Source: Branchiostoma floridae | Taxonomy: Eukaryota > Chordata > Leptocardii > Amphioxiformes > Branchiostomatidae | DNA length: 64,000 nucleotides | Reading direction: 5' to 3' | Assembly: GCF_000003815.2 (NCBI RefSeq) | Contig: NC_049991.1 | Span: 8,758,998 to 8,822,997 of the forward strand | In this document: positions 20,896-47,852 of the stretch, piece by piece | Layout of the letters: every line of letters starts with the position of its first letter | How positions within the stretch are numbered: position 1 is the first letter of the stretch | Translations under genes and position numbers: made by a program | Notes under the pieces: generated by a model | What the model saw: the letters and a program-made list of their open reading frames with translations, nothing else | What the model was told of the DNA's origin: nothing | The model's database searches: none

Positions 20896-21306
20896 AGGGG
20901 TGGGTACCAGTATGTTGTACCAGTACAAAACCTTTTTCTTATTGGACCGGTCCGGAAAAAACAGACCTGAAAAAAATCGGTGGACCAGATGTTGGACCTA
21001 TTGGACAATGAACAGATTATATGATCGGGCATTCAGACATTTGGGGGCTTACCGGTCGAAGAAAATAACAGCGAAGTAGAGTGGAGTCTTTAGTCATTTG
21101 TACAAAGATTTACAGTCAATCGTGCAGGGATAGTTAGCCTTGTAGGATTTCAAAACGCCATTGGGAGTCCAATACGCCACAAACCAGTTTTTGTGGCGAA
21201 ATGGACCATTGTTTTGAGTATTGTCCATTCATAAGTTTTCACATACTGAATCAGGTCCAGACCTGGACCTCTGGACCCGAATTTTCTGTACTGGTACCCG
21301 TCGCTA
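20896..21306. mobile_element. ggtaccagta MITE, copy 1
   Basis: About 410 bp, with ends aggggtgggtaccagta and, inverted, tactggtaccc. The interior is rich in ggacctg/ggaccgg words. There is no coding capacity. Copies of the same family lie at 27236-27653, 33556-33950 and 39900-40305. This copy lies directly 3' of the first LRR gene, between it and the TBL3 3' UTR. Confidence 0.75.
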
Positions 21307-21321
21307 CTATACATCAATAGG

Positions 21322-22449
21322 TTACACCTGATGAAGACTTATGTCATCAGCACCAACCCTATCTCCTTCATAAGGGCTGTCTGACCTGAACTTCCTGATT
21401 ATCAATGATATCAAGACAACGATTGATACCGATATCATTACTGCAATGTGGCGGACTCTGACCTGCGGTTCTGTGTTGTCCATTAGGTGGGTTGCAGTAG
21501 ACCTTGTGGTGTTACAATACCCTGTAAAAACTTTGGTTGCAGTAGATGAAGGGGATCGTCGGGGTTTACTTCGAGGCAAAGTCGTACTTCCATAGTATGC
21601 CTCTTCTAGTTTCCCAAGAACTTCAGCAGTAGCGCCTTTCCTTTGAGTCTGTCTTGGCTGAAGCTCGGACACCTTAGAAGTTGTGGAGACCAGTTTCTCA
21701 TCTCTGCACCCTGTGAGATACTGCGAGACGTTCCACAAGGGTAGACCTTTCAGGTGATTTGGTCTGGCGCAAACCATGCCATCGGTTTCAAAGGCACCGA
21801 ATATACAGGTGTCACACTGCACACAGGCTCTCAGAGGGCTCTTCTCTGTGTTCATGGTTTCATGCCAGCATTTGAGTCTGGTGATTAGCCACAACATTGC
21901 GCAGTCACAGCGAAACGGGTTGTTCGCAAACTTGGCAAAACCCAACTTGGGGAAACCGAGCTGGTGGTAGGAGAAGGAGGAAAGCCTGTTATCTGCCACG
22001 CCCACAAATCTCAGATGTGGGAGGTCCTTGATGACCGCACCCACGTTCACGTGCACAAGTCTGTTGTAATCCAACTTGAGGTACTGCAAAGCCGGCAAGT
22101 TTCGAAGTAAAAGCCACTCAACCGTTTCCATACGGTTCCATCGAATGTTCAGTGAAGTAAGGTTCTTTAGCACCGGGATTTCGCGAAGATTCTTGATGCG
22201 GTTGAAGGAAATGTCCAGCGTGATTGTATCTGACGGTAGCCCCTCAGGTATCGCAGTGTACCTGTTGTGAAGGTCCTTGTGGATACAAAAGATGTTTAGT
22301 TGTGAAGTTGGCGTCCCGTCTGGTGTGGTCGGAATGACACAGCCCAGTGGCAAGGCGCGGTCTTCCGTTGAAACAAGCCCAAAGTATGAGACGATAGTAA
22401 TAAGTGCGAAGCATTTCATTGTCAGAATTGTGGTACCGACACACTCCAT
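21322..22449 (-). CDS. Intronless LRR transmembrane receptor, copy 1
   Basis: The single-exon frame encodes up to 375 aa. Translation may start at 22449 or at the in-frame ATG at 22419, which directly precedes a good signal peptide (MKCFALITIVSYFGLVSTE). Next come a two-cysteine N-cap region, about four leucine-rich repeats (ITLDISFNRIKNLREIP, LTSLNIRWNRM, LQYLKLDYNRL, LRFVGVADNRL) and an LRRCT cap (NPFRCDCAMLWL plus later cysteines). A Ser/Thr/Pro-rich stalk, one membrane span (HIAVMISVSIVVLISLII) and a 24-residue cytoplasmic tail without a TIR or other known signalling domain complete it. NLTS, NVSQ and NTTR are potential N-glycosylation sites. The role is probably cell-surface recognition or adhesion; the layout recalls VLR/GPIb-like receptors, but orthology is not shown. 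Confidence 0.88.
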   Translation of the reverse strand: MECVGTTILTMKCFALITIVSYFGLVSTEDRALPLGCVIPTTPDGTPTSQLNIFCIHKDLHNRYTAIPEGLPSDTITLDISFNRIKNLREIPVLKNLTSLNIRWNRMETVEWLLLRNLPALQYLKLDYNRLVHVNVGAVIKDLPHLRFVGVADNRLSSFSYHQLGFPKLGFAKFANNPFRCDCAMLWLITRLKCWHETMNTEKSPLRACVQCDTCIFGAFETDGMVCARPNHLKGLPLWNVSQYLTGCRDEKLVSTTSKVSELQPRQTQRKGATAEVLGKLEEAYYGSTTLPRSKPRRSPSSTATKVFTGYCNTTRSTATHLMDNTEPQVRVRHIAVMISVSIVVLISLIIRKFRSDSPYEGDRVGADDISLHQV

Positions 22450-22800
22450 GTTACCACACTAGTATTTCTGTATACGTAATAACATGGAGGTTGGTAATAA
22501 CTGACCTGTTGGTTCTTTAGTCCTTGAAGTAAGTTTACCTTTTACACAATGCTTGGCACGGACATGTGGAGTACGATGTACATGTAAGTGGATAGCAGTC
22601 TTGAATCTAACTTGTCTACCTGCTGCACAGAATGTGACAGACACTCAGCTCGGGGCAGGCAGACGTATGGGGTCATTAGCCTTGGAATATTCAACAATGT
22701 TTTTTTTTAGTACTAGTATATTTCAACACATGGTGTGATGCTCCATTCATACATGTATACAGAACACATATGCAATACCAAGGACGTTGTATCAAGGAGG

Positions 22801-22807
22801 TTATATA
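22801..22807 (-). promoter_or_regulatory. TATA-like box upstream of LRR copy 1
   Basis: On the minus strand it reads cagTATATAAcc, about 350 bp before the ATG. The same word sits at nearly the same distance in the other three copies. Conservation may simply reflect recent duplication. Confidence 0.35.
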
Positions 22808-23149
22808 CTGAGCGTTGTAAAGGTAAAGAAAATAAGGGCCATCTATCTGCTTGGATGTATCAGAAGAAGACATAAGAAGAACACACCAACAAAAACACCA
22901 TCCTATCCTATAGGGGAAACATTTATTGAAAGACGCTACCTAGGAGACCAGACACTGCACGCCTAATTACATTACGTGTTGCACGAGCCTCCCCGCCTTA
23001 CTCATTCGACTGGACCTTCTCCAAAACCAAACAATAAAATAACTCACTAATATATCGACTTAGAAACTGTAGAACTGGTTGAAAGTACTACAATTTCGTT
23101 GTTGTGGTTACAGTATACTAGTAACAAACAGGTCGTTGAACTATCATTG

Positions 23150-23640
23150 TCATTATGCATATTCATGAGGTGTCCACACAAAGAAGTCATTAACATATTA
23201 CTCGACAATCCTTGACAGGTGCAAACAGGTGAGAGAAAGATAATGATACAATTTCAAGTTCACAAATAGCGCAATTTAAAACCAATTTGAACTGCAAGAA
23301 AGGTGCGAGGACGACAAAAATCGACCATGTCGTGTGTATACAACAGTAGTAAACAATTTGTCGATCTTTCTGTTGGTGACGTCAGGAGCGGAATTTCGGT
23401 CTTGTAATTTTGCCACGGCGAGAAATCGTTTTCTTTCAAAAGCGATGCAAGCGGTGACCAACTATCGGTACTCTGGTTTCCCTTCAGTACCTACGTACAA
23501 ATCTTTCGCCTTTTACTAAAGATTTCCGTGGAGGGGTGCAATCAATGAGTCTATAACTCAATTTTTCCCTGCCCTGTCCCGACCAGGGCTCCTAATAAAC
23601 CAAAGAAGTTCGCATACACTGATTGTCAGCACTGTGCATT
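23150..23640 (-). repeat. LRR upstream module with CRE, copy 1
   Basis: A 500-bp block 5' of the LRR gene occurs five times in the window. It holds a POU/octamer-like word tatgcatattcatgagg (near 23155) and a perfect palindromic CRE tgacgtca at 23377-23384, kept in all five copies. It may be a distal promoter or enhancer of the LRR genes. Function is inferred only from position and repetition. Confidence 0.5.
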
Positions 23641-23867
23641 CTAGCGACGTCAGCATGGCGTATTTCATAATCCTACTTTGCACCGCTACAGTGTAAAGAA
23701 AGAGGTCCCAAGTGATTTATTGGCAAAATCGTTAGGGAATACCGTGAATATACTTAACTTTAACTATTCAAAAGTATTGAAAAGCATTCTTGAAAACAAA
23801 AGTGCAAAAGTATTCTCGAAAACAAAACTGCAAAAGTATATTATTGTCAACAAAACTACAAAGGGAA

Positions 23868-24004
23868 AAAAAAACCGCCAAACGGACAGAAAAACAAAAT
23901 GTGTGCGGTCAAAACCCCAGAATATTCAAATAACAAGGGGAGAAGGTCCAGTTCTAGAAATGCGTAAAAATATCTGTCTGGTGACTCATGATCAGGTCTG
24001 TTTG
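23868..24004 (+). pseudogene. Fragment of TBL3 last exon, truncated
   Basis: The sequence matches the last roughly 30 codons of TBL3 (KMCxVKTxEYSNN and the basic tail) and then its 3' UTR, with similarity running on to about 24660. The original stop codon is changed and the upstream exons are absent. It is the leftover of a duplication that began inside the TBL3 last exon and carried an LRR gene with it. Confidence 0.75.
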
Positions 24005-24289
24005 GTTTAAATTTTTTATATATTTACTATCTTTTTTTTTCGCTGATTTGTAGAGACCTTGTGTGGGATAAGGACATTACTAATCCAATGTATAGGTCTA
24101 TATCACAACAGTTATTAAAAACATTGTTAATATGCTGATCCATTGATAACTTTGTCTGAGAATGTCTTCTTAAGTTGGACATATGCGGTAAGGAAAATTA
24201 CGAGAATTATGATACCCGGTAGATGCAGCATAATTTAATGTATAATGACTCTTGTTACAGTGCCAAATACGTTATAGCCCATGAAAACT

Positions 24290-24510
24290 AGCAGCATCTA
24301 TTGTTATGATTAGTATTATTGTTTACATTCAGTTTCATTACCATTGTTATTTAATCATTTCATTTATTGCTGTCTATTTATGTTTGCCTATGTTTGTGAT
24401 GAATATGTTTAATTTCTTTTTATGTAACACGCAGGGCTCCACTGAAAAGCAGTGCAAGAGCACTGAGCTTGGACCACTCTGGATAAAGATTACAGAAATA
24501 AAATAAAACT
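24290..24510 (+). mobile_element. LINE-like 3' end inserted in TBL3-derived 3' UTR, copy 1
   Basis: Compared with the TBL3 3' UTR at 20535-20550, 221 extra bases interrupt gaaaact/acattt, with aaact duplicated on both sides. The insert ends ggataaagattacagaaata followed by aaataaa, like the 3' end of a CR1/L2-type retroposon. The same insertion is at 36925-37144 but absent from 20540 and 33225. Confidence 0.7.
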
Positions 24511-24869
24511 ACATTTGATAAATGTAACATTTTTGTCACACTTTGGACTAGAATCTAAAATATGATGCTGATACAAACTATTGCTATTAGTACATATTGA
24601 TATATACATGTGTTAGGTAATATCAAGACACAATAAAGCTAGTCATTCTACGGTCCTTTTTACACAGCTTTTTTATGTATTTTTGAAATATAGCTTTTAT
24701 GTACAGGCTATGTAAGTCAACACCAAACCACATATGTAATATCAATCATTGCAATCCATCCAAATATCATTAGCTCTGTGCTAATCAATCTAGTCACAAA
24801 TAGATAGCATCTACAATGTAAGCTTCAAACACATGCTAATAAATCATAACTTTCATATACATCTATAGG

Positions 24870-25991
24870 TTACATCTGATGAAGACTAATGTCATCAGCA
24901 CCAACTCTATCATCTCCTTCGTAAGGGCTGCCAGACCTGAACTTCCTGATTATCAATGATATCAAGACAACGATTGATACCGATATCATTACTGCAATGT
25001 GGCGGACTCTGACCTGCGGTTCTTTGTTGTCCATTTGGCAGGTTGCAGTAGACCTTGTGGTGTTACAATACCCTGTAAAAACTTTGGTTGCAGTAGATGA
25101 AGGGGATCGTCGGGGTTTACTTCGAGGCAAAGTCGTACTTCCATAGTACGCCACTTCGAGTTTCCCAAGAACTTTAGCAGTAGCTTCTTTCCTTTGAGTC
25201 TGTCTTGGCTGAAGCTCGGACATCTTAGAAGTTGTGGAGACCAGTTTCTCATCTCTGCAAGCTGTGAGATACTGCGAGACGTTCCACAAGGGTAGACCTT
25301 TCAGGTGATTTGGTCTGGCGCAAACCATGCCATCGGTTTCAACGGCACCGAATATACAGGTGTCACACTGCACACAGGTTGTCAGAGGGCTCTTCTCTGT
25401 GTTCATGGTTTCGTGCCAGCATTTTAGTCTGGTGATTAGCCACAACATTGCGCAGTCACAGCGAAACGGGTTGTTCGCAAACTTGGCAATACTCAACATG
25501 GGGAAACCGAGCTCTTTATAGGAGAAGGAGGGAAGTTTATTGTTTGCCACGCCCACAAACCTCAGATGTGGGAGGTCCTTAATGACCGCACCCACGTTCA
25601 CGTGCACAAGTCTGTTGTAATCCAACTTGAGGTACTGCAAAGCCGGCAAGTTTCGAAGTAAAAGCCACTCAACCGTTTCCATACGGTTCCATCGCACGTT
25701 CAGTGAAGTAAGGTTCCTTAGCACCGGGATTTCGCGAAGATTCTTGATGCGGTTGAAGGAAATGTCCAGCGTGATTGTATCTGACGGTAGCCCCTCAGGT
25801 ATCGCAGCGTACTTGTTGTGAATGTCATTGTGGATACAAAAGATGTTTAGTTGTGAAGTTGGCGTTCCGTCTGGTGTGGTCGGAATGACACAGCCCTGTG
25901 GCAAGGTGCGGTCTTCCGTCGAAACAAGCCCAAAATATGAGATGATAATAATAAGTGTGAAGCATATCATTGTTGTCCCGACACTCTCCAA
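24870..25991 (-). CDS. Intronless LRR transmembrane receptor, copy 2
   Basis: An intact 373-aa frame with the same architecture as copy 1: signal peptide (MICFTLIIIISYFGLVSTE), two-Cys N-cap, about four LRRs, LRRCT (NPFRCDCAMLWL), stalk, one membrane span and a short tail. It differs from copy 1 in the last LRR (NNKLPSFSYKELGFPMLSI in place of DNRLSSFSYHQLGFPKLGF) and in the N-cap (HNDIHNKYAAIPEGL). These lie in the region that would form the ligand face and its borders. Probable cell-surface receptor; the ligand is unknown. Confidence 0.87.
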   Translation of the reverse strand: MESVGTTMICFTLIIIISYFGLVSTEDRTLPQGCVIPTTPDGTPTSQLNIFCIHNDIHNKYAAIPEGLPSDTITLDISFNRIKNLREIPVLRNLTSLNVRWNRMETVEWLLLRNLPALQYLKLDYNRLVHVNVGAVIKDLPHLRFVGVANNKLPSFSYKELGFPMLSIAKFANNPFRCDCAMLWLITRLKCWHETMNTEKSPLTTCVQCDTCIFGAVETDGMVCARPNHLKGLPLWNVSQYLTACRDEKLVSTTSKMSELQPRQTQRKEATAKVLGKLEVAYYGSTTLPRSKPRRSPSSTATKVFTGYCNTTRSTATCQMDNKEPQVRVRHIAVMISVSIVVLISLIIRKFRSGSPYEGDDRVGADDISLHQM

Positions 25992-26329
25992 GTATTACCA
26001 TACTTAGTATTTATGTATACGTAATAACAAGTGGGTTGGTAATAACTGACCTGTGGGCTCTTCAGTCATCGAAACGTTTCCTTTTTTGATAATACTTGGC
26101 GTATGGAGTACGATGTAAGTGGATAGCAGTCTTGAATCTAACTTGTCTACCTGCTGCACAGAATGTAACAGACACTCAGCTCGGGGCAGGCAAACGTATG
26201 GGGTCATTAGCCTTGGAATATTCAACAATGTTTTTTTTTTACTAGTATATTTCAACACATGGCGTGATTCTCCATTCATACATGTATCCAGAACACACAT
26301 GCAATACCAATGACGTTGTATCAAGGAGG

Positions 26330-26336
26330 TTATATA
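26330..26336 (-). promoter_or_regulatory. TATA-like box upstream of LRR copy 2
   Basis: On the minus strand it reads TATATAA, about 340 bp before the start codon, at the position equivalent to copy 1. Confidence 0.35.
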
Positions 26337-26674
26337 CTGAGCGTTGTAAAAGCAAAAGTAAAAAATAAGGGCCACCTATCTGCTTGGATGTACCAGAAGA
26401 AGACCACACCAACAAAAACACCATCCTATCCTATAGGGGAAACATTTATTGAAAGACGCTACCTAGGAGACCAGACACTGCACGCCTAATTACATTACGT
26501 GTTGCACGAGCCTCCCCGCCTTACTCATTCGACTGGACCTTCTCCAAAACCAAACAATAAAATAACTCAATAATATATCGACTTAGAAACTGTAGAACTG
26601 GTTGAAAGTACTACAATTTCGTTGTTGTGGTTACAGTATACTAGTAACAAACAGGTCGTTGAACTATCATTGTC

Positions 26675-27170
26675 ATTATACATATTCATGAGGTTTCCAC
26701 ACAATGAGGTCATTAACATATTACTCGACAATCCTTGACAGGTGCAAACAGGTGAGAGAAAGATAATGATACAATTTCAAGTTCACAAATATCGCAATTT
26801 AAAACCAATTTGAACTGCAAGAAAGGTGCGTGGACGACAAAAATCGACCATGTCGTGTGTATACAACAGTAGTAAACAATTTGTCGATCCTTTTGTTGGT
26901 GACGTCATGAGCGGAATTTCGGTCTTGTAATTTTGCCACGGCGAGAAATCGTTTACTTTCAAAGGCGGTGCAAGCGGTGACCAACTATCGGTACTCTGGT
27001 TTCCCTTCAGTACCTACGTACAAATCTTTCGCCTTTTACTAAAGATTTCCGTGGAGGGGAACAATCAATTAGTCTATAACTCAATTTTTCCCTGCCCTGT
27101 CCCGACCAGGGCTCCTGATAAACCAAAGAAGTTCGTATACACTGTTTCTCAGCACTGTGCATTCCAGAGA
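26675..27170 (-). repeat. LRR upstream module with CRE, copy 2
   Basis: Same module as at 23150, with tgacgtca at 26900-26907. The octamer-like word is altered here (tatacatattcat). Confidence 0.5.
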
Positions 27171-27235
27171 TGTTAGTATTACGTATTTCTTACACACAGC
27201 AACAGTGCCGATATGTTACCTTCCTCATGACAGTT

Positions 27236-27653
27236 GCTAAGGGGTGGGTATACGGTTTACCGGTACAAAACCGCGTTTTTTTGGACCGGTTCGGAAAAAC
27301 CGGACCTGAAAAAATTCGGTGGAACCGATGTTGGACCAATTGGAAAAGGAAAATATGATCAGGCATTCGCACGTTTTGGGGCTTACCGGTCGAAGAAAAA
27401 AGCAAGAGCGAAGTCTATGGTCATTTCTACAAAATTTTTCAGTAAATCGTCAAGAGCCAGTTAGCCTTGCAAGACTTCAAAACGCCAATGGGAGTCAAAT
27501 ACGCCACAAAATAGATTTGTTTGTAGCGAAATGGACCATTGTTTTGAGTATCGTCCTTTCACAACTTTTCACAGTTGGACCTGGGCCTGATCCTCTGGAC
27601 CTGAACCGGACCTGCGGACCTTAATTTTCTGTACTGGTACCCACCCTTAGCAA
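27236..27653. mobile_element. ggtaccagta MITE, copy 2
   Basis: About 418 bp with inverted ends gctaaggggtgggta and tacccacccttagc. No ORF of note. It is followed by a small hairpin, caaggagctt ... aagctccttg (27651-27679). Confidence 0.75.
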
Positions 27654-27878
27654 GGAGCTTGATAAAAGCTCCTTGCCCTTAGTAATTACTGATAATACTT
27701 TGCACCGCTACAGTGTAAAGAATGAGGTCTCAAACGCTTTATTAGCAAAATGATTTGGGAATACTGTGAGTACATGCCAACGCGCTTCTGTCAATGATTG
27801 TTCCATGTGCTTCAACTTTGTTGTTCTATGACGTCCATTTGTTATATGACGTATAGGGAACATGACGTAACACAAAGA

Positions 27879-28193
27879 ATGTCGAACATGACAACCAGTT
27901 TTGTTTGGAGCATTTCGAACGATGTCGCTCCGACGCAACATTCGATTCAACCTAGGAGCACAGCTATCTCCGGTCCTTCCTCTACAAATAGTAGGAGATT
28001 CACCTTCAGTTCTAGTCCAGGTGGTCAACTTTTGTACGAGAATATGACCATCTTAAAAAACGTGACATGTGGAGGAAGAGGAGAATTTCGATCTTCAGTA
28101 GAAACTGTGTTTCGTGTGGAGAAAGAGGGCCATGACCGTCCGCCATCCCTCGAACTCAGTCAAGTCTCCGACCAGGTAGGAACTGTAGTTTGA
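27879..28193 (+). CDS. Hypothetical 104-aa ORF (segment A copy)
   Basis: ATG at 27879, stop ending at 28193. The product is Ser/Thr-rich with no signal peptide and no recognisable domain. The same 104-aa frame is kept in segment B (47532-47846) with few changes. Near the C-terminus GGRGEFRSSVETVFRVEKEG matches the translated minisatellite unit WRRRGVFRSSIAGVFCVEKK, so this stretch is homologous to the array monomer. An in-frame ATG further upstream (27798) exists only in A. It may be a real small protein, an exon, or only remnant sequence; I do not assign a function. Confidence 0.35.
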   Translation: MSNMTTSFVWSISNDVAPTQHSIQPRSTAISGPSSTNSRRFTFSSSPGGQLLYENMTILKNVTCGGRGEFRSSVETVFRVEKEGHDRPPSLELSQVSDQVGTVV

Positions 28194-28199
28194 GTTGAT

Positions 28200-28740
28200 T
28201 ACTCTCCAAGCAGAGGTTAAGATCCGACTTTTTTTTTACGTTTTATACGTCTTTATCGGGCTTTTTCGCCGCGAGACATCAACTGCATGACAGACGAGTA
28301 GCCTTGTGTATTAAGTTCGCCAAAACGCTTGACCAGGAACTGCTCCCACCGAGAATGAGCAACGGCGATGGACACAGGATGAGTACTAGAAACTCACACA
28401 AATACAGACCTATTAAATGTAAAACAAACAGGTATAGAGATTCACCGGTTCCATACATGACAAGGCTACTGAACGAGGACATGTGAGGCAGAGGCTTATA
28501 TAATTGAGAATTCTTTTAGCGTTTATGATCTGTATTGACGGATCTGTTTTGACTGATCTGTATGTAACAGTTGTCATATAGTTGGTGATTTCCCGAATAT
28601 TTCAATTGTCTATATCCAAGTTTCTAGCAATTTGTGAAATTTTAATGTGTATTAAGATTTTAATGGAATTATGCCTGTAACAAAGTGTAAGTAATACGTA
28701 ATTCAGCCACCCCGGCTGCAATGTATTTACAAATAAACCA

Positions 28741-28774
<34 letters not shown>

Positions 28775-28844
28775 TGGTACAAAATAGAAAGCCCGATAAA
28801 AGCGTCTAAAAAACAGTCGGAGCCTAACCTCTGCTTAAAGAGTA
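28200..28844. mobile_element. 9-bp-TSD MITE, interrupted (segment A)
   Basis: The ends tactctccaagcagaggtta... and their inverse at 28844 match the MITE at 2463-2673. The flanks are tgagttgat (28191-28199) and tgagtcgat (28845-28853), a 9-bp duplication with one mismatch. The element is split by a 487-bp insert at 28284-28770. The intact counterpart in segment B is 158 bp (47853-48010). Confidence 0.8.
28284..28770 (+). mobile_element. 5'-truncated non-LTR retrotransposon insertion with (cat)n tail
   Basis: These 487 bp are absent from segment B. A frame from about 28285 to a stop at 28486 reads RRVALCIKFAKTL, LPPRMSNGDGHRMSTRNSHK and later NRYRDSPVPYMTRLLNED. It resembles the extreme C-terminus of CR1/Crack-type LINE polyproteins. 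A 3' UTR follows, ending in a (cat)n microsatellite (28743-28770). It is inserted within the MITE and therefore younger than the A/B duplication. Confidence 0.8.
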
Positions 28845-29197
28845 TGAGTCGATGGCCATCTCTGTTTTCTAGATCTGTGTGTATGCAGTGTACGTGTGTA
28901 CTGTTACAGTAGCTGTACACCGCTTGTGGCTTTTCATGGATTTATGAAGTCTTGCTCAGACGTTATCTACATTCAGTAAGGTTACCGCTTCTCTTGAAAG
29001 ATTGTTCCACCAGGAAAACATGCTGTTGGTAAAGACTGAAAATAGTACTGTTACTGAAGTTTCCTTTGTTTTGTGAGCTTGCTTCCCTTGGCTATATTTT
29101 CTATTTCCCACATGGCATCATACTTTCCGCGAAGGCATTTAGATTCTAAGTGTTTACTGTAACACGCAATATTTGATATTTTACTAGTCCAAGAGTA

Positions 29198-29356
29198 GCC
29201 TGGGTACCATCCGCGTAGTAGTTCGCTCATATGTTCGCTTCTGCTACCCACAGAGAATAGCAAAGAAGCGACTGTGTATAGTGTAGTACATAACTGGGAG
29301 CGAGAAGCGACTGTATAGAATAGCGTCGAAGCGAACCCTTATCCGGATGGTACTTG
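29198..29356. mobile_element. ggtaccatccg MITE (segment A)
   Basis: About 160 bp with inverted ends ggtaccatccgcgtagtagt and, reversed, ggatggtac. The internal words gaagcgactgt repeat. No coding capacity. An equivalent is at 48359-48515, and partial relatives occur near 2957 and 19118. Confidence 0.7.
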
Positions 29357-29985
29357 GCTAACATTATAGTGACTAAGTTGAGAATCCCAGATGTTCCGAC
29401 GCCGAAGCCGGTCAGACAAAACCGTCTTTCTACTATAATTCCAGCTTCAACAACATTGTGTAGAGCGAGAGACCATGTTGGTGCCCCGTACTCTAGATAT
29501 GATCGTACTGTTGACTTTTACCACAGTAAAAAAACGTTCACAACAGGCCTGCTATCTGTAATGCCTTGCTACTGACTATTCTTGAAATAATGTAACTGAT
29601 AAAATTGTACTCTTGTTGAGCAGATATAGACTTTCTAGCTTTTATTCATGTTGCATCAGTCTAAGGAATGCTTTTTATTCATTTGATATAAAATGTACAA
29701 GTGAAATCGGGGAGTCATATAGAGCAAGTCATTGAACTTGTCCCCGTGTTCTATAATGTCATCAAACAACGTTATAAAGAACATGTTGTTCTAAGAAGTC
29801 GAACATGACAACAAGTTTGTTTTGCGTCATTCGAACAATGTCGCTCCAACGCCGTGTTAACAGTTGAAGTAAACACGTGAGCTAAACAAAACAAGTCTTA
29901 TTTTCAGTTCTAGTGAAATCGCGTAATACAAGAAGCCATTTATCCCAATCTTCAGAAGCAGGTATGTTCTAAAAGGAAATAGAGG

Positions 29986-31045
29986 AGCTTTCCGATCTTC
30001 AATAGCATCTGTGTTATCTCTGCAGAAGAGGAGTATTCCGATCAACAATAGCAGCCGTGTTATGTGTGGAGAAGAAGAGGAGTATTCCGATCTTCAATAG
30101 CAGCTGTGTTTTTTTTGTGGAGAAGAAGAGGAGTATTCCGATCTTCAATAGCAGCTGTGTTATGTGTGGGGAAGAAGAGGATTATTCCGATCGTCAATAG
30201 CAGGTGTGTTATGTGTGGAGAAGAAGAGGAGTATTCCGATCTTCAATAGCAGGTGCGTTTTGTGTGGAGAAGAAGAGGAGTATTCCGATCTTCAGTAGCA
30301 GGTGTGTTATGTGTGGAGAAGAAGAGGAGTATTCCGACCTTCAATAGCAGTTGTGTTATGTGTGGAGAAGTAGATGAGTATTCCGATCTTCAATAGCAGC
30401 TGTGTTAAGTGGGGAGAAGAGGAGGAGTATTCCGATCTTCAATAGCAGCTGTGTTATGTGTGGAGAAGAAGAGGAGTATTCCGATCTTCATTAGCAGGTG
30501 TTTTGTATGGAGAAGAAGAGGAGTTTTCCGATCTTCAATAGCAGCTGTGTTTTTTTGTGGAGAAGAAGAGGAGTTTTCCGATCTTCAATAGCAGTTGTGT
30601 TTTTTTTTTGTGGAGAAGAAGAGGAGTATTCCGATCTTCAATAGCAGCTGTGTTTTTTTGTGGAGAAGAAGAGTAGTATTCCGATCTTCAATAGCAGGTG
30701 TGTTTTGTATGGAGAAGAAGAGGAGTATTCCGATCTGCAATAGCAGTTGTGTTATGTGTGGAGAAGAAGAGGAGTATTCCGATCTTCAATAGCAAGTGTG
30801 TTGTATGGGGAAGAAAAGGAGTATTCCGATCTCCAATAGCAGCTGTGTTATGTGTGAAGAAGAGGAGTATTCCGATCTCCAATGGCAGTTGTGTTATGTG
30901 TGGAGAAGAAGAGGAGTATTCCGATCTGCAATAGCAGTTGTGCTATGTATGGAGAAGAAGAGGAGTATTCTGGTCTTCAATTATGGCAGCTGAGTCTTGT
31001 TTGCAGAAGAAGAGTATTCAGATTTTCCATAGCAGCTGTGTTATT
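29986..31045 (+). repeat. 49-bp minisatellite array A (about 21 units)
   Basis: Units of 48-52 bp contain tgtggagaagaagaggagta, then ttccgatcttcaatagcag and a variable gtgttatg/gtgttttttt joint. Because 49 is not a multiple of three, successive units are read in rotating frames. Two frames are stop-free, and the third ends at the tag in caatag, which explains the many 60-80 aa spurious ORFs ending in SDLQ. Divergence is higher at both array edges. Confidence 0.93.
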
Positions 31046-31640
31046 CTTGTTTTGTACTTACTAAAATTTAATATTTAGCATCCATCTCTATGCCTAGTGT
31101 TCTCATGTACAATCGTTGGTTGGGCGTAATTTAACCGTTACTGTTTTTGTTTGTCGACGTCAGTTTAACATTTATCGATCTTTAGATTAGTAAAGTCAAC
31201 ATTACCACTGAATTGATTCGTTTATAAGAATGCATCGATATCCTTTTACTTTGGGGAAATTGGTGAAATAGCTTTGCTTTGTTTATGTATCGTTAGAAAC
31301 CCCAGAGAATTTGATTGGTTGTTTTGCACAAAGGCTCTGGTGCACGTCCCCTATTTTTTGCCTTCTTTATTGTGGAAAGGTTTTTTAGGGGTTGCGTGGC
31401 TGGCAAACAACAGTTTTCTCAAAATTCACTGGAACGCTGAGAACATATTTGAAAATATTTTCATTTTTGTTTCAAAGGAACCTGGAAATAAAACGAAACT
31501 GAATACGTCATGATCAATTCTACTTGGCGTGTTTAGTTTTGTTTTACTTAAAGGTTGTGCTTGTGCTTACTGTAAACATGCCATCATATGATACAATCAT
31601 TTTCATTTGTGGACTTTTTGTTTCGACTATTGTAAAATGT
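31046..31640. other. Segment A unique sequence with conserved short ORF
   Basis: It contains a 79-codon frame (31274-31513) ending near aaataaaacg. The B copy (54423-54617) keeps most of it in a shortened frame. The local similarity looks like repeated non-coding DNA rather than a protein under selection. Confidence 0.4.
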
Positions 31641-32115
31641 TAAGGACGTTTCTATTTCGGTTTAATTTCTCTTCACGTTTCGGCACTTCTTAAATCACTT
31701 ATGTATATTAGATACGTTTTCTGTTTCGGACAAGTTATCATCAGTTGGAATTTCTATTACATTTGGCTTTGATTACAAAAGAATGTGCGATTACTAATCT
31801 TTCTGTTTCGGTCTAGTTTTTGCCCATTATTTATGTGAGTTTTGACACTTCTCACTTTAAAAGTTACTGTAATATTTTACAGTTTTGGGTTTGTTTATGA
31901 AAAGTATCGTTCGATTACTGACGTTTCTCTTTCGGTCCAGTTTTGGCCCCACATCTCTGTACGTTTCGACACTTTTGTCATTTTAAAAAATTGCATCTTT
32001 GTCAGTTATATTTGACCGTTATTTTGGATTTCATCCGAAAAGGTTTGTGCGATTACTGACGTTTTTGTTTCGGTCCAGTTTTGGCCTCTCATTTCTGTTC
32101 TTTTCGACACTTCAG
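31640..32115. repeat. Imperfect tandem repeat, about 130-bp period, 4 units (segment A)
   Basis: The word gcgattactgacgtttctgtttcggtccagttttggcc recurs in diverged form near 31645, 31789, 31913 and 32049, each followed by a cacttttcgacactt-like stretch. The same array is present in B (about 54740-55220). Confidence 0.65.
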
Positions 32116-32535
32116 GATTAAAGTTGGCCACACGCGGTGTCCAAGCACTCGCGCCCATCCTACAAACGAGTGTGTGTATTCATTCAGTGTGGTGTACATG
32201 TATGTGTGGACTGCTGTGAGAGTCTGATGTACAGGTGTGATGCAGAAACTAGTGTAATGTGATTTCTTCTTGTGGAACGACATAGATGGGTCTACACATG
32301 CGTTTTCGGAGTCGACTCAGCAGAGTTAACATTTTGGGCATGTAATTTAGGTAACTGATGCGTCAATTGTAGGTGAGACCGTGACGGCGGAAGGCCATGA
32401 TAGGTTCTGGACTACTGTATCAAAAACTTGAAGACCACACATTTAAATCCATCTTGAGTCGGCGCGGTACAGGGAGTCAGAATCGCAGCTGAGGCAATGG
32501 GCGCGTGGCCCCGTACCTAAACCCAACACTCCCGA

Positions 32536-32919
32536 GTGTCGATTCCAGTCCGGAGTCGACTACAAAATGCGTGTGTAATCTCCGATTCCTCATCCGAGAA
32601 AAGCTTCTCTGATTCGTCAGACGCGCCAGTCATGATTGTAGACGTACAATTGAAGCCAGCAACTGGAAATGTAACCACACAAAGTGGCAGTCCTAAAGAT
32701 ATTGGACAATCGGTGGGGAAGAAGAACTCCAGCCAAGAGGACAGCTCGGATGAAGACTGGGATGCTGTTCTGGCAGCCATGAGGAAATCGGACGCCAACA
32801 AAACAAAGGGACCTGCGAAGGGGAAAACCCCTGCCAAACAGGGACAGAAAAAAAAAATGTGTCCGGTCAAAACCCCAGAATATTCAAATAACAAGAGGAG
32901 AAAGTCCAGTTCTAGATAG
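32536..32919 (+). pseudogene. TBL3 C-terminal tail copy fused to segment A
   Basis: From 32577 the sequence matches the TBL3 last exon from 19907 onward, nearly identical through the stop codon and 3' UTR. It encodes the acidic/basic tail from ISDSSSEKSFSDSSDAP to the basic end. The 14 codons before it (32536-32577) come from the right end of segment A, giving a chimeric 127-aa frame by chance. No WD40 or Utp13 domain and no upstream exon is present, so it is a breakpoint relic of the 12.7-kb tandem duplication. Confidence 0.8.
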
Positions 32920-33555
32920 GCGTAAAAATATCTGTCTGGTGACTCAGGACCTGGTCTGTTTGATTCAAAATTGTGTATCTTTTTTTTTTCATTGCTTTGT
33001 AGAGACCTTGTGTGGGATAAGAACATTCAATTAACTAATCCAATGTATAAGTCTGTATCATTAGAAACATTGTTAATATGCTGATCCATGCATAACTTTA
33101 TTTTCTGAGGATGACGTGTTAAAGTTGGACATATAAGGAAAATGACGAGTATTTTGATAGATGCAGCATAGTTTAATACATAATGATTTTTGTTACAGTG
33201 CCAAATACCTTATAGCCCATGAAAGCTACATTTGATCAATGTAACATAGTACATTGATATATACATGAGTTAGAGGTATATCAAAACACAATAAAGCTAG
33301 ACATTCTATGGTCCTTTTTGCACTGCTTTTGAAATAGTAAATAACAAATATATTGATAATAGTATTACAGCTTTTACCGGTATTTACAACTTATGTTGGT
33401 CAATACCAGACCAGATACCAAATATTATCAATTAATCATAGCAAACCATCGAAATATTATTAGCTTGGTGCTGTTTAATTACAAATACAAATGTAGCATG
33501 TAAGATACAAACACATACTACTAACTCAAATAAAACCATAACTTTCCTGTACATT

Positions 33556-33950
33556 AGGGGTGGGTATCAGTAAGGTGTACCAGTACAAAACCGTTTTTCT
33601 TACTGGACCGGTCCAAAAAAAACGGACCTGAAAAAAATCGGTGGACCGGATGTTGGACCTTTTGGAAAATGAACAGAATATATGATCGGGCATTCACACA
33701 ATTGGGGGCTTACCGGTCAAAGAAAATAACTGATAAGTAGAGTGGAGTCTATAGTCATTGTGTTACAGTCAATCGTACAGAGGTAGTTAGCCTTGTAGGA
33801 TTTGGGTGTCTAATACGCCACAAACCAGTTTTTGTAGCGAAATGGACCATTTTTTTTAGTATCGTCCATTCATGAGTTTTCACATACTGAATCAGGTTCG
33901 GACCTGGACCTCTGGACCCGAATTTTCTGTACTGGTACCCGTCGCTACTA
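33556..33950. mobile_element. ggtaccagta MITE, copy 3
   Basis: It corresponds to copy 1 (20896-21306) in both position and sequence, just 3' of an LRR gene. It was therefore carried along by the large duplication rather than inserted independently. Small internal deletions distinguish it. Confidence 0.75.
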
Positions 33951-33962
33951 TACATCTATGGG

Positions 33963-35058
33963 TTACACCTGATGAAGACTTATGTCATCAGCTCCAACTC
34001 TATCATCTCCTTCATAAGGGCTGCCAGACCTGAACTTCCTGATTATCAATGATATCAAGACAACGATTGATACCGATATCATTACTGCAATGTGGCGGAC
34101 TCTGACCTGCGGTTCTTTGTTGTCCATTTGGCAGGTTGCAGTAGATCTTCTGGTGTTACAATACCCTGTAAAAACTTTGGTTGCAGTAGACGAAGGGGAT
34201 CGTTGGGGTTTACTTCGAGGCAAAGTCTTACTTCTATAGTACGCCTCTTCTAGTTTCCCAAGAACTTTAGCAGTAGCCCCTGTCCTTTGAGTCTGTCTTG
34301 GCTGAAGCTCGGACACCTTAGAAGTTGTGGAGACCAGTTTCTCATCTCTGCAAGCTGTGAGATACTGCGAGACATTCCACAAGGGTAGTCCTTCCAGGTG
34401 GTTTGGTCTGGCGCAAACCATGCCATCGGTTTCAACGGCACCGAATATACAGGTGTCACACTGCACACAGGCTCTCAGAGGGCTCTTCTTTGTGTTCATG
34501 GTTTCGTGCCAGCATTTGAGTCTGGTGATTAGCCACAACATTGCGCAGTCACAGCGAAACGGGTTGTTCGCAAACTTGGCAATACTCAACATGGGGAAAC
34601 CGAGCTCTTTATAGGAGAAGGAGGGAAGTTTGTTGTTTGACACACCCACAAACCTCAGATCTGGGAGGTCCTTAATGACCGCACCCACATTCACATGCAC
34701 AAGTCTGTTGTAATCCAACTTAAGGTACTGCAAAGCCGGCAAGTTTCGAAGTAAAAGCCACTCAACCGTTTTCATGCGGTTCCATCGCATGTTCAGTGAA
34801 GTAAGGTTCTTTAGCACCGGGATTTCGCGAAGATTCTTGATGCGGTTGAAGGAAATGTCCAGCGTGATTGTATCTGACGGTAGCCCCTCAGGTATCGCAG
34901 TGTACTTGTTGTGAATGTCATTGTGGATACAAAAGATGTTTAGTTGTGAAGTTGGCGTCCCGTCTGGTGTGGTCGGAATGACACAGCCCTGTGGCAAGGT
35001 GCGGTCTTCCGTTGAAACAAGCCCAATATATGAGACGATAGTAATAAGAGCGTTTCAT
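33963..35058 (-). pseudogene. LRR transmembrane receptor, copy 3, start and signal peptide broken
   Basis: The body (LRRs, LRRCT NPFRCDCAMLWL, stalk, membrane span, tail) is intact over 344 codons. The ATG equivalent to the other copies (35058) is out of frame: where copies 1 and 4 have nine bases between aataag and tttcat, this copy has four, a net loss of 5 nt. In the receptor frame an in-frame TGA lies directly upstream and there is no ATG before the LRR region. Unless an alternative first exon supplies a start, the product would lack its signal peptide. It is probably a recent pseudogene or a donor for gene conversion. Confidence 0.8.
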
Positions 35059-35441
35059 TGTCAGGATTGTGGTACCGACACACTCCAAGTATGTTACCAC
35101 ACTAGTATTTCTGTATACGTAATAACAAGGAGGTTGGTAATAACTGACCTGTTGGTTCTTTAGTCCTTGAAATAAGTTTACCTTTTACACAATGCTTGGC
35201 ACGGACATGTGGAGTACGATGTACATGTAAGTGGATAGCAGTCTTGAATCTAACTTGTCTACCTGCTGCACAGAATGTAACAGACACTCAGCTCGGGGCA
35301 GGCAGACGTATGGGGTCATTAGCCTTGGAATATTCAACAATGTTTTTTTAGCACTAGTATATTTCACCACATGGTGTGATTCTCCATTCATACATGTATC
35401 CAGAACACACATGCAATACCAATGACGTTGTATCAAGGAGG

Positions 35442-35448
35442 TTATATA
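35442..35448 (-). promoter_or_regulatory. TATA-like box upstream of LRR copy 3
   Basis: Same TATATAA word and spacing as in copies 1, 2 and 4, although the downstream gene is broken. Confidence 0.3.
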
Positions 35449-35779
35449 CTGAGCGTTGTAAAAGCAAAAGTAAAAAATAAGGGCCACCTATCTGCTTGGA
35501 TGTACCAGAAGAAGACCACACCAACAAAAACACCATCCTATCCTATAGGGGAAACATTTATTGAAAGACGCTACCTAGGAGACCAGACACTGCACGCCTA
35601 ATTACATTACGTGTTGCACGAGCCTCCCCGCCTTACTCATTCGACTGGACCTTCTCCAAAACCAAACAATAAAATAACTCACTAATATATCGACTTAGAA
35701 ACTGTAGAACTGGTTGAAAGTACTACAATTTCGTTGTTGTGGTTACAGTATACTAGTAACAAACAGGTAGTTGAACTAT

Positions 35780-36275
35780 GATTGTCATTATGCATATTCA
35801 TGAGGTGTCCACACAAAGAAGTCATTAACATATTACTCGACAATCCTTGACAGGTGCAAACAGGTGAGAGAAAGATAATGATACAATTTCAAGTTCACAA
35901 ATAGCGCAATTTAAAACCAACTTGAACTGCAAGAAAGGTGCGAGGACGACAAAAATCGACCATGTCGTGTGTATATAACAGTAGTAAACAATTTGTCGAT
36001 CTTTCTGTTGGTGACGTCATGAGCGGAATTTCGGTCTTGTAATTTTGCCACGGCGAGAAATCGTTTTCTTTCAAAAGCGATGCAAGCGGTGACCAACTAT
36101 CGGTACTCTGGTTTCCCTTCAGTACCTACGTACAAATCTTTCGCCTTTTACTAAAGATTTCCGTGGAGGGGAACAATCAATGAGTCTATAACTCAATTTT
36201 TCCCTGCCCTGTCCCGACCAGGGCTCCTAATAAACCAAAGAAGTTTGCATACACTGATTGTCAGCACTGTGCATT
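35780..36275 (-). repeat. LRR upstream module with CRE, copy 3
   Basis: Same module as at 23150, with tgacgtca at 36012-36019 and the octamer-like tatgcatattcat word near 35790. Confidence 0.5.
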
Positions 36276-36496
36276 CTAGCGACGTCAGCATGGCCTATTT
36301 CATAATCCTACTTTGCACCGCTACAGTGTAAAGAAAGAGGTCCCAAGTGATTTATTGGCAAAATCGTTAGGGAATACCGTGAATATACTTAACTTTAACT
36401 ATTCAAAAGTATTGAAAAGCATTCTTGAAAACAAAAGTGCAAAAGTATTCTCGAAAACAAAACTGCAAAAGTATATTATTGTCAACAAAACTACAA

Positions 36497-36600
36497 AGGG
36501 GAAAAAAACCGCCAAACGGACAGAAAAACAAAATGTGTGCGGTCAAAACCCCAGAATATTCAAATAACAAGGGAAGAAGGTCCAGTTCTAGAAATGCGTA
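36497..36600 (+). pseudogene. Fragment of TBL3 last exon (second-round copy)
   Basis: Almost identical to the fragment at 23868. It matches the last codons of the TBL3 tail and then the 3' UTR, with the stop lost. It was carried by the 12.7-kb duplication. Confidence 0.75.
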
Positions 36601-36924
36601 AAAATATCTGTCTGGTGACTCATGATCAGGTCTGTTTGGTTTAAATTTTGTATACATTTACTATCTTTTTTTTCACTGATTTGTAGAGACCCTGTGTGGG
36701 ATAAGGACATTACTAATCCAATGTATAGGTCTATATCACAACAGTTATTAAAAACATTGTTAATATGCTGATCCATTGATAACTTTATTGTCTGAGAATG
36801 TCTTCTTAAGTTGGACATATACGGTAAGGAAATGACGAGAATTATGATACCCGGTAGATGCAGCATAATTTAATGTATAATGACTTTTGTTACAGTGCCA
36901 AATACGTTATAGCCCATGAAAACT

Positions 36925-37144
36925 AGCAGCATCTATTGTTATGATTAGTATTATTGTTTACATCAGTTTCATTACCATTGTTATTTAATCATTTCATTTA
37001 TTGCTGTCTATTTATGTTTGCCTATGTTTGTGATGAATATGTTTAATTTCTTTTTATGTAACACGCAGGGCTCCACTGAAAAGCAGTGCAAGAGCACTGA
37101 GCTTGGACCACCCTGGATAAAGATTACAGAAATAAAATAAAACT
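36925..37144 (+). mobile_element. LINE-like 3' end insertion, copy 2
   Basis: Same 220-bp insertion at the same site as 24290-24510, with the aaact duplication. It was inherited by duplication, not inserted independently. Confidence 0.7.
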
Positions 37145-37505
37145 ACATTTGATAAATGTAACATTTTTGTCACACTTTGGACTAGAATCTAAAATATGAT
37201 GCTGATACAAACTATTGCTATTATAGTACATATTGATATATACATGTGTTAGGTAATATCAAGACACAATAAAGCTAGACATTCTACGGTCCTTTTTACA
37301 CAGCTTTTTTATGTATTTTTGAAATATAGCTTTTATGTACAGGCTATGTAAGTCAACACCAAACCACATATGTAATATCAATCATTGCAATCCATCCAAA
37401 TATCATTAGCTCTGTGCTAATCAATCTAGTCACAAATACATAGCATCTACAATGTAAGCTTCAAACACATGCTACTAAATCATAACTTTCATATACATCT
37501 ATAGG

Positions 37506-38654
37506 TTACATCTGATGAAGACTAATGTCATCAGCACCAACTCTATCATCTCCTTCGTAAGGGCTGCCAGACCTGAACTTCCTGATTATCAATGATATCA
37601 AGACAACGATTGATACCGATATCATTACTGCAATGTGACGGACTCTGACCTGCGGTTCTTTGTTGTCTATTTGGTGGGTTGCAGTAGACCTTGTGGTGTT
37701 ACAATACCCTGTAAAAACTTTGGTTGCAGTAGATGAAGGGGATCGTTGGGGTTTACTTCGAGGCAAAGTCGTACTTCCATAGTACGCCACTTCGAGTTTC
37801 CCAAGAACTTTAGCAGTAGCTTCTTTCCTTTGAGTCTGTCTTGGCTGAAGCTCGGACATCTTAGAAGTTGTGGAGACCAGTTTCTCATCTCTGCAAGCTC
37901 TGAGATACTGCGAGACGTTCCACAAGGGTAGACCTTTCAGGTGATTTGGTCTGGCGCAAACCATGCCATCGGTTTCAACGGCACCGAATATACAGGTGTC
38001 ACACTGCACACAGGTTGTCAGAGGGCTCTTCTTTGTGTTCATGGTTTCATGCCAGCATTTGAGTCTGGTGATTAGCCACAACATTGCGCAGTCACAGCGA
38101 AACGGGTTGTTCGCAAACTTGGCAATACTCAACATGGGGAAACCGAGCTCTTTATAGGAGAAGGAGGGAAGTTTATTGTTTGCCACGCCCACAAACCTCA
38201 GATGTGGGAGGTCCTTGATGACCGCACCCACATTCACGTGCACAAGTCTGTTGTAATCCAACTTAAGGTACAGCAAAGCCGGCAAGTTTCGAAGTAAAAG
38301 CCACTCAACCGTTTCCATACGGTTCCATCGCACGTTCAGTGAAGTAAGGTTCTTTAGCACCGGGATTTCGCGAAGATTCTTGATGCAGTTGAAGGAAATG
38401 TCCAGCGTGATCGTATCTGACGGTAGCCCCTCAGGTATCGCAGTGTACCTGTTGTGAAGGTCCTTGTGGATACAAATGATGTATACCTGTGAGGTTGACG
38501 TGGTGGCCTCGTCTGGTATGTTTGAAACAAAACAGCCCAGTGGCAAGGCGCGGTCTTCCGTTGAAACAAGTCCCAAATATGAGACGATAGTAATAAGTGC
38601 GAAGTATTTCATTGTCAGGATTGTGGTACCGACACACTCCAAGTATGTTACCAC
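37506..38654 (-). CDS. Intronless LRR transmembrane receptor, copy 4
   Basis: An intact frame of up to 382 aa. The best start is the ATG at 38612, which opens the signal peptide MKYFALITIVSYLGLVSTE. Architecture is as in copy 1. The N-cap is the most divergent of the four (GCFVSNIPDEATTSTSQVY, with an insertion relative to GCVIPTTPDGTPTSQLN). The C-terminal half is close to copy 2 and the 5' coding part is closer to copy 1, so it looks recombinant. Probable cell-surface recognition protein; the ligand is unknown. Confidence 0.87.
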   Translation of the reverse strand: MVTYLECVGTTILTMKYFALITIVSYLGLVSTEDRALPLGCFVSNIPDEATTSTSQVYIICIHKDLHNRYTAIPEGLPSDTITLDISFNCIKNLREIPVLKNLTSLNVRWNRMETVEWLLLRNLPALLYLKLDYNRLVHVNVGAVIKDLPHLRFVGVANNKLPSFSYKELGFPMLSIAKFANNPFRCDCAMLWLITRLKCWHETMNTKKSPLTTCVQCDTCIFGAVETDGMVCARPNHLKGLPLWNVSQYLRACRDEKLVSTTSKMSELQPRQTQRKEATAKVLGKLEVAYYGSTTLPRSKPQRSPSSTATKVFTGYCNTTRSTATHQIDNKEPQVRVRHIAVMISVSIVVLISLIIRKFRSGSPYEGDDRVGADDISLHQM

Positions 38655-38990
38655 ACTAGTATTTCTGTATACGTAATAACAAGGAGGTTGGTAATAACTG
38701 ACCTGTTGGTTCTTTAGTCCTCGAAATAAGTTTACCTTTTACACAATGCTTGGCACGGACATATGGAGTACGCTGTAAGTGGATAGCAGTCTTGAATCTA
38801 ACATGTCTACCTGCTGCACAGAATGTGACAGACACTCAGCTCGGGGCAGGCAGACGTATGGGGTCATTAGCCTTGGAATATTCAACAATGTTTTTTTTAG
38901 TACTAGTATATTTCACCACATGGCGTGATTCTCCATTCATACATGTATCCAGAACACACATGCAATACCAATGACGTTGTATCAAGGAGG

Positions 38991-38997
38991 TTATATA
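38991..38997 (-). promoter_or_regulatory. TATA-like box upstream of LRR copy 4
   Basis: On the minus strand it reads TATATAA, about 380 bp before the preferred ATG at 38612. Confidence 0.35.
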
Positions 38998-39329
38998 CTG
39001 AGCGTTGTAAAAGCAAAAGTAAAAAATAAGGGCCACCTATCTGCTTGGATGTACCAGAAGAAGACCACACCAACAAAAACACCATCCTATCCTATAGGGG
39101 AAACATTTATTGAAAGACGCTACCTAGGAGACCAGACACTGCACGCCTAATTACATTACGTGTTGCACGAGCCTCCCCGCCTTACTCATTCGACTGGACC
39201 TTCTCCAAAACCAAACAATAAAATAACTCACTAATATATCGACTTAGAAACTGTAGAACTGGTTGAAAGTACTACAATTTCGTTGTTGTTGTTATAGTAT
39301 ACTAGTAACAAACAGGTAGTTGAACTATG

Positions 39330-39840: not shown

Positions 39841-39899
39841 TATTACGTATTTCTTACACACAGCAACAGTGCCGATATGTTACCTTCCTCATGACAGTT

Positions 39900-40305: not shown

Positions 40306-40307
40306 TC

Positions 40308-47846: not shown

Positions 47847-47852
47847 GTTGAT

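What the first reader, a model, noticed from the sequence alone, without database searches (positions are those of the whole stretch)
21322..38654. Four-gene LRR receptor cluster with mosaic copies (gene conversion)
Diagnostic differences change partner along the genes. Copy 3 follows copy 1 at its extreme 3' end and at gcctcttctag, caccttag and aggctctcag, but follows copies 2/4 at ctgccagac, caacggcacc and aactcaacatgggg. Copy 4 has a copy-1-like 5' part (HKDLHNRYTAIPEGL) and a copy-2-like 3' part. Alternating tracts suggest repeated conversion that reshuffles the N-cap, last LRR and stalk. This could diversify surface receptors, in a way loosely reminiscent of agnathan VLR assembly.
Basis: partly seen in the sequence, partly recalled or inferred. 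Interest (0 to 1): 0.7.

Follow-up and report, generated by a model that had tools for sequence, protein, structure and literature searches.

The report
LRR receptor genes within U5-snRNA repeats
Four near-identical surface-receptor-like genes each sit back to back with a splicing-RNA (U5) gene in a duplicated repeat unit, and the copies appear to have overwritten parts of each other, which mainly keeps them alike rather than building a lamprey-style receptor repertoire.

Summary
Each gene (minus strand) lies head-to-head with a U5 snRNA gene (plus strand); a fifth U5 gene at 40636-40758 has no LRR partner. Two rounds of duplication explain most of the pattern: an older ~3.7-kb tandem duplication (types alpha, beta), then a block duplication, 19907-27573 to 32577-40219, with a clean junction at 32577. 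Flanks group copies 1+3 and 2+4. From just past the LRR stop to the U5 gene, alpha and beta differ by 4-5%, against 12-23% in 3' flanks. There, 17 of 46 informative sites contradict the block tree; 0 of 6600 single-tree simulations reached 17. So gene conversion is supported, clearest at the leader/N-cap of copy 4. Copy 3 lacks an in-frame start codon. Whole-gene dN/dS is below 1 in all six pairs and concave LRR positions are conserved. Best read as concerted evolution of a composite repeat, not VLR-like assembly. Assembly or haplotype artefact is not excluded.

The parts
21322..22419 (-). LRR gene copy 1 (alpha position), 365 aa: signal-peptide-like start, N-cap with two Cys, LRRs, Cys-rich C-cap, stalk, C-terminal hydrophobic segment, short tail
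   Evidence: ORF; Pfam LRR_8 4.9e-13; alignment. Domain limits other than the LRRs read from sequence.
24870..25970 (-). LRR gene copy 2 (beta position), 366 aa
33963..35054 (-). LRR gene copy 3 (alpha position); net 5-nt deletion puts the ATG out of frame, first in-frame Met lies inside the LRRs: probable pseudogene or assembly error
37506..38612 (-). LRR gene copy 4 (beta position), 368 aa; leader and N-cap partly alpha-like, plus a private N-cap stretch
23468..23590 (+). U5 snRNA gene of unit 1, head-to-head with copy 1
   Evidence: Rfam RF00020, 92.0 bits, model 1-117
26991..27113 (+). U5 snRNA gene of unit 2
   Evidence: Rfam RF00020, 91.4 bits
36103..36225 (+). U5 snRNA gene of unit 3
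   Evidence: Rfam RF00020, 96.9 bits
39655..39777 (+). U5 snRNA gene of unit 4
   Evidence: Rfam RF00020, 95.7 bits
40636..40758 (+). fifth U5 snRNA gene, no LRR partner; its 5' flank is not homogenised with the other four
   Evidence: Rfam RF00020, 94.2 bits; 200 bp upstream 8.7-10.6% from units 1-4
21308..23669 (.). homogenised segment of unit 1 (copies: 24856-27192, 33949-36304, 37492-39856)
   Evidence: self-BLAST; six pairs differ by 3.6-5.2%; alpha/beta similarity falls off in the last 80 bp beyond U5 (11-19% different)
22255..22570 (-). leader + N-cap tract (copy-1 coordinates) where the grouping changes: copies 2 and 4 differ by 16.3% here and 2.0% in the rest of the core
   Evidence: five consecutive 14|23 sites 22356-22262; AU for 13|24 0.014 in 22419-22255
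19907..27573 (+). block A (3' coding stretch of an unidentified plus-strand ORF, units 1 and 2)
   Evidence: 93.4% to 32577-40219
32577..40219 (+). block B (units 3 and 4)
32577..32578 (.). duplication junction: sequence to the left matches up to 55686, sequence to the right matches from 19907; about 2 bp shared

Best explanation
A composite repeat unit, made of a minus-strand LRR membrane-protein gene and a plus-strand U5 snRNA gene about 1 kb apart, was duplicated in tandem (alpha, beta). The pair was then duplicated again as a block, giving units 1-4; a fifth U5 gene lies beside them. Afterwards, short interlocus gene-conversion tracts (tens to hundreds of bp, inferred) moved between units across the ~2.3 kb from just past the LRR stop codon to the U5 gene. 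They erased most alpha/beta divergence there and left genes whose leader, N-cap and body have different histories. The net effect is mainly homogenisation (concerted evolution), with local new combinations in the leader/N-cap. Shown: the units, the repeat structure, conflicting site histories, the flank/core contrast. Inferred: the order of duplications, gene conversion (rather than crossing over) as the agent, its direction, and that the protein is a surface receptor.
For: Same repeat unit, different parts: alpha/beta 3' flanks differ by 12-23% (JC 0.13-0.28), the 2.36-kb core by 4.2-5.2%. Non-coding upstream sequence in the core is as similar as coding sequence (2.7-5.3% and 3.9-5.8% in the four alpha/beta pairs), so protein constraint alone is not the cause. 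17 of 46 informative sites conflict with the block tree; maxima in single-tree simulations 5, 6, 11, 11 (4 x 400 runs; those trees were a little too short) and 5, 9, 12, 14, 14 with divergence matched (5 x 1000 runs). Informative sites are clustered (17 runs, P=0.0017; longest 14|23 run 5, P=0.0066; within the CDS alone 0.022 and 0.048). 3SEQ-like scan: 11 of 24 ordered triplets pass P<0.05 after Bonferroni, 6 of 24 are above 0.05 uncorrected (rows not independent). Copies 2 and 4: 16.3% in leader/N-cap, 2.0% in the rest of the core (region chosen after seeing the profile). In the 100-column window from 22565, copies 1, 3 and 4 differ by 1-3% and copy 2 differs from each by 16-20%, as if copy 4 took an alpha leader. 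Rfam U5, model 1-117, in all five places.
Against: No reads, second haplotype or second individual were available, so an assembler switching between near-identical copies could make the same mosaic. Only four sequences. The whole 2.36 kb taken together still prefers the block tree (AU 0.999), and of eight core segments only signal+N-cap rejects it; that P=0.014 would not survive correction for eight. Several GENECONV-like runs mirror one copy's private cluster (copy 1 at 21939-22017, copy 4 at 22290-22338) rather than a shared tract, so an unsampled donor or local fast change is needed there.
Confidence: 0.7

Rival explanations
1. Assembly artefact: the two blocks are the two haplotypes of a highly heterozygous animal placed in tandem, or the mosaic comes from consensus switching among near-identical copies and alleles.
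For: Blocks are 93.4% identical with divergence from 0 to 16.5% per 200 bp, a range that alleles of a very diverse species might show (recalled, not tested). A 100-N gap at 16438-16537 shows a scaffolded assembly.
Against: No N within 19.9-55.7 kb. The block junction is a clean breakpoint between two distant source points with about 2 bp shared. The blocks differ in content: OLF gene and fifth U5 only in B, 49-bp repeat array of different length. Conversion between alpha and beta (1 vs 2, 3 vs 4) would remain even if the blocks were alleles.
Confidence: 0.17
2. Conversion is an adaptive diversifying mechanism that reshuffles ligand-binding parts, VLR-like in effect.
For: Variation concentrated in signal+N-cap (22 of 56 residues); positional partners 2 and 4 made 16% different there; N-cap grouping {1,4} against {2,3}.
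Against: dN/dS 0.36-0.69 over the gene. Of 30 regional comparisons two are above 1 (N-cap 1-3, 1.31; stalk 2-4, 1.29; both Fisher P=1.0) and one has five non-synonymous and no synonymous changes (LRRCT 1-4, P=0.59). Concave positions 3 of 20 variable. No further copy or cassette similar to these proteins in the window. Copy 3 has no usable start.
Confidence: 0.08
3. The U5 snRNA array drives homogenisation and the LRR gene is a passenger.
For: snRNA multigene families are described as evolving in concert (passages of PMC4291461; of PMC3795722); the homogenised core ends at U5. U5 RNA differs by only 0.8-2.4% among units 1-4, though function alone could explain that.
Against: The U5 copy without an LRR gene is not homogenised (200 bp upstream 8.7-10.6% different, against 1.5-4.5% among units 1-4). 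Similarity has no peak centred on U5: the spacer between the genes (0.6-2.0%) is as uniform as the U5 RNA and more uniform than the U5 promoter.
Confidence: 0.12
4. Duplication alone, with purifying selection and parallel substitutions, no conversion.
For: 13|24 is the commonest informative class (29 of 46) and the best tree for the whole core (AU 0.999).
Against: Non-coding upstream DNA is about as alike as coding DNA, and the conflicts exceed all 6600 simulations.
Confidence: 0.04

Closest known systems
Tandem snRNA arrays in concerted evolution (human RNU2 U2 array; U2-U5 clusters of fishes)
   Same: Repeat unit with an snRNA gene, copies homogenised in place (passages, and titles in reference lists, of PMC3795722, PMC3464664 and PMC4291461)
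   Different: Here only five U5 copies are seen, and four units also carry a protein-coding LRR gene that is homogenised along with the spacer
Zebrafish NLR-B30.2 immune receptor family
   Same: Receptor-type genes with gene conversion acting on parts of the gene; the chromosome that holds most of them also carries 53% of all snRNAs (passages of PMC4852459)
   Different: Different protein family, nearly 400 genes, positive selection in B30.2; the passages seen do not say that a gene and an snRNA share one repeat unit
Amphioxus VLR-like protein Bf66946
   Same: Short LRR protein with a Cys-rich C-cap; sequence match of copy 2 at 1.5e-7 (PDB 4xsq)
   Different: Many vertebrate LRR proteins match better (best 7e-13, PDB 2id5/4oqt); our N-cap has 2 invariant Cys, Bf66946 has two LRRNT disulfides (Results text, part 1 of 2, of PMC4731796)
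Lamprey/hagfish VLR
   Same: LRR ectodomain with stalk; gene conversion invoked
   Different: No incomplete germline gene, no cassettes seen in the window, conserved concave positions, C-terminal hydrophobic segment; no somatic process shown

Membership tests
Agnathan VLR | LRRNT cap of VLR type (two disulfides, four Cys) | tested here: not met
   Only C27 and C45 invariant in the N-cap; no LRRNT Pfam match at E<=0.001 in any of the 4 copies
Agnathan VLR | Incomplete germline gene with many flanking LRR cassettes | tested here: not met
   Near-complete ORFs; nothing similar to the copy-2 or copy-4 protein outside the four genes in 64 kb, best outside E 0.36. Unrelated LRR cassettes and the rest of the genome were not searched.
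Agnathan VLR | Hypervariable concave residues | tested here: not met
   3 of 20 motif-assigned concave positions vary, 13 of 92 other LRR positions; germline copies only
Agnathan VLR | Somatic assembly in lymphocytes | not testable with these tools
   no RNA or cell data
LRR proteins (Pfam LRR_8) | Match above gathering score | tested here: met
   4 of 4 copies, 33.4-49.1 bits, cut-off 27
U5 snRNA (RF00020) | Full-length match above gathering score, loop GCCUUUUAC, Sm-type AAUUUUU | tested here: met
   5 of 5, 91.4-96.9 bits, cut-off 40, model 1-117; both motifs (recalled) in 5 of 5; expression not tested
Concerted evolution by gene conversion | Paralogue similarity far above that of flanks of the same duplication | tested here: met
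   4.2-5.2% against 12-23% in the four alpha/beta pairs
Concerted evolution by gene conversion | Tracts with conflicting histories beyond homoplasy | tested here: met
   17 conflicting sites, 0 of 6600 simulations reached 17
Concerted evolution by gene conversion | Copies more alike within than between species | not testable with these tools
   no related animal genome at hand; the genome search did not complete

The most novel reading that the evidence does not exclude
A surface-receptor gene and a spliceosomal snRNA gene form one divergently transcribed repeat unit. The tendency of such arrays to recombine is what shuffles leader and N-cap tracts among receptor copies, so an snRNA array acts as a conversion platform for a possible immune receptor. 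The co-location of most zebrafish NLR-B30.2 genes with about half of that species' snRNAs (PMC4852459 passages) would be a second case.
Probability: 0.12. Interest if true: 0.65.

Novelty: new variant of a known kind. Interest (0 to 1): 0.4.

Why it matters
Concerted evolution of snRNA arrays and gene conversion in receptor families are both known. A receptor gene carried inside a U5 unit links the two and gives a small, readable array (four LRR and five U5 genes, two layers of duplication) in which tract length, direction and the effect on protein sequence could be measured. It also warns against reading private substitutions as partner switches, and paralogue mosaics as VLR-like systems.

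Tried and rejected
AlphaFold2 on copy 2 with the four-row alignment gave mean pLDDT 34.8, so no fold search was run and no structural claim is made. ARAGORN found no tRNA. A lenient Rfam scan of 22400-23900 (E up to 1) found only U5, so the uniform stretch between the genes (about 22830-23140) matched no known RNA family. Whole-unit site counts (451/10/7) were dropped because flanks with insertions are misaligned there; the 2.36-kb alignment was used instead. In one search only the top three runs per pair with global P below 0.2 were printed. A link to VLR assembly was considered and rejected.

Papers. Seen as passages: PMC4291461, PMC3795722, PMC3464664, PMC4852459; abstract and Results part 1 of 2: PMC4731796; outline and abstract only, not used: PMC10199209, PMC8211107. 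Searches for a described unit of this kind: 0 papers hold snRNA + tandem repeat unit + concerted evolution + protein-coding gene; 2 hold snRNA + leucine-rich repeat + tandem + amphioxus; 1 holds Branchiostoma + U5 snRNA; 12 hold Branchiostoma + leucine-rich repeat + gene conversion; 6 hold amphioxus + concerted evolution + gene conversion + tandem; 5 and 4 hold snRNA terms with concerted evolution. No title or abstract start in these listings describes an LRR-U5 unit; bodies were not read beyond the passages named. The library is open-access only.
Full report
What is there. The window holds four minus-strand LRR ORFs at the stated place. Pfam LRR_8 matches all four above its gathering score. 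The ORFs encode 363-368 residues and are 88.6-93.9% identical in the five pairs compared by tblastn. They have a signal-peptide-like start, an N-cap with two invariant Cys, LRRs, a Cys-rich C-cap, a stalk, a hydrophobic C-terminal segment and a short tail (read from sequence). Copy 3 is different: a net 5-nt deletion puts its ATG out of frame. The ATG product is 46 aa, and the first in-frame Met of the long ORF is residue 89, inside the LRRs. It is a probable pseudogene unless an upstream exon or an assembly error is involved.

A missed partner. Rfam finds five full-length U5 snRNA genes on the plus strand, starting at 23468, 26991, 36103, 39655 and 40636. Four stand head-to-head with the LRR genes, about 1 kb away. 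The fifth has lost, or never had, the LRR part. All five keep the loop and the AATTTTT motif. The repeat unit is therefore LRR gene + spacer + U5 gene.

Duplication history. Self-comparison shows 19907-27573 repeated at 32577-40219 at 93.4%. At 32577 the sequence passes from a stretch that matches up to 55686 to one that matches from 19907, with about two shared bases. This is what a tandem duplication of a segment like 19907..55686 would leave, with later loss from the first copy of the part that holds the OLF gene and the fifth U5 (inference). Within each block, unit 2/4 repeats unit 1/3; in the 3' flank 20154-20542 matches 23871-24290. The alpha/beta 3' flanks differ by 12-23%.

Conversion. 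In the core (21308-23669 and its copies) the six pairs differ by 3.6-5.2%; coding and non-coding upstream parts are similar, so protein constraint alone does not explain it. Of 184 polymorphic ungapped columns, 136 are private to one copy, 46 are informative (29/10/7 for 13|24, 14|23, 12|34) and 2 have three states. Simulating one tree gave at most 11 conflicting sites in 1600 runs. Those trees were slightly too short, so I repeated it with divergence matched to the data: at most 14 in 5000 runs, against 17 observed. Conflicts cluster (P=0.0017 over the core, 0.022 within the CDS). By segment, flanks and far upstream strongly favour 13|24, leader and TM/tail favour it more weakly, signal+N-cap favours 14|23 (others P=0.014), and the mid-upstream, LRR, LRRCT and stalk parts reject no tree at 0.05. 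The GENECONV-like scan of the whole core gave 3 runs with global P<0.05 (c2-c4 0.002, c3-c4 0.0036, c1-c3 0.028). Several of these mirror one copy's private cluster and point to an unsampled donor or local change instead.

Three copy-1-like places of copy 3 are plain block-tree sites. Two of the three places where copy 3 'follows 2/4' are private copy-1 changes, and so is the third when read at its place. The copy-4 N-cap is a true switch: copies 2 and 4 differ by 49 of 301 in leader+N-cap and by 41 of 2035 elsewhere in the core (P=4e-22; region picked after seeing the profile).

Function. Whole-gene dN/dS is 0.36-0.69 for all six pairs; the synonymous excess has P<0.05 in 4 of 6 (a fifth pair is at 0.050). 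The concave LRR positions (assigned by motif) are conserved (3 of 20 vary), and the TM+tail is nearly fixed (2 of 43 vary). Variation sits in signal+N-cap (22 of 56 residues). PDB sequence matches of copy 2 are to many LRR surface proteins (143 distinct sequences, best 60 shown), best 7e-13 to an LRR-Ig neuronal protein (2id5, 4oqt; LINGO-1 by recall), with the amphioxus VLR-like Bf66946 at 1.5e-7. A single-pass surface receptor or adhesion-type protein is the likely role; Pfam shows no signalling domain at E<=0.001. An immune role is a guess.

Who drives. The fifth U5, without an LRR, is 8.7-10.6% different in the 200 bp upstream, while units 1-4 differ by 1.5-4.5% there. Among units 1-4 the spacer (0.6-2.0%) is as uniform as the U5 RNA (0.8-2.4%), so there is no peak centred on U5. 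Homogenisation therefore seems to follow the length of shared homology in the LRR-bearing units rather than U5 itself; this is inference from one odd copy.

Limits. The genome search did not complete, so paralogues elsewhere, reads and haplotypes were not seen. The artefact reading keeps about one chance in six.

Noticed in passing
window 40636-40758: Fifth U5 snRNA gene without LRR partner; its 5' flank is 9-12% from units 1-4 while its RNA is 1-3% different.
   Followed up: partly
window 30000-31050 and 49200-54100: 49-bp minisatellite arrays of about 1 kb and 5 kb, homologous parts of the two duplicated blocks.
   Followed up: partly
window 20896-21299, 27240-27642, 33556-33940, 39904-40256: A ~400-bp dispersed element lies at the edge of the homogenised segment: beside the LRR stop in units 1 and 3, beyond U5 in units 2 and 4.
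   Followed up: no
window 42670-43578: Olfactomedin-domain ORF (OLF 6.1e-26) between block B and the minisatellite; no match in block A in the self-comparison.
   Followed up: no
window 56436-58109: ZNF598-type protein exon (PAH_ZNF598 3.9e-22), minus strand.
   Followed up: no
window 47898-47971: Sub-threshold mir-4875-like hairpin (35 bits, cut-off 90), perhaps a small inverted-repeat element.
   Followed up: no
window 22830-23140: Spacer stretch between LRR and U5 nearly identical in all four units (0.6-2.0%); no known RNA family; purpose unknown.
   Followed up: partly
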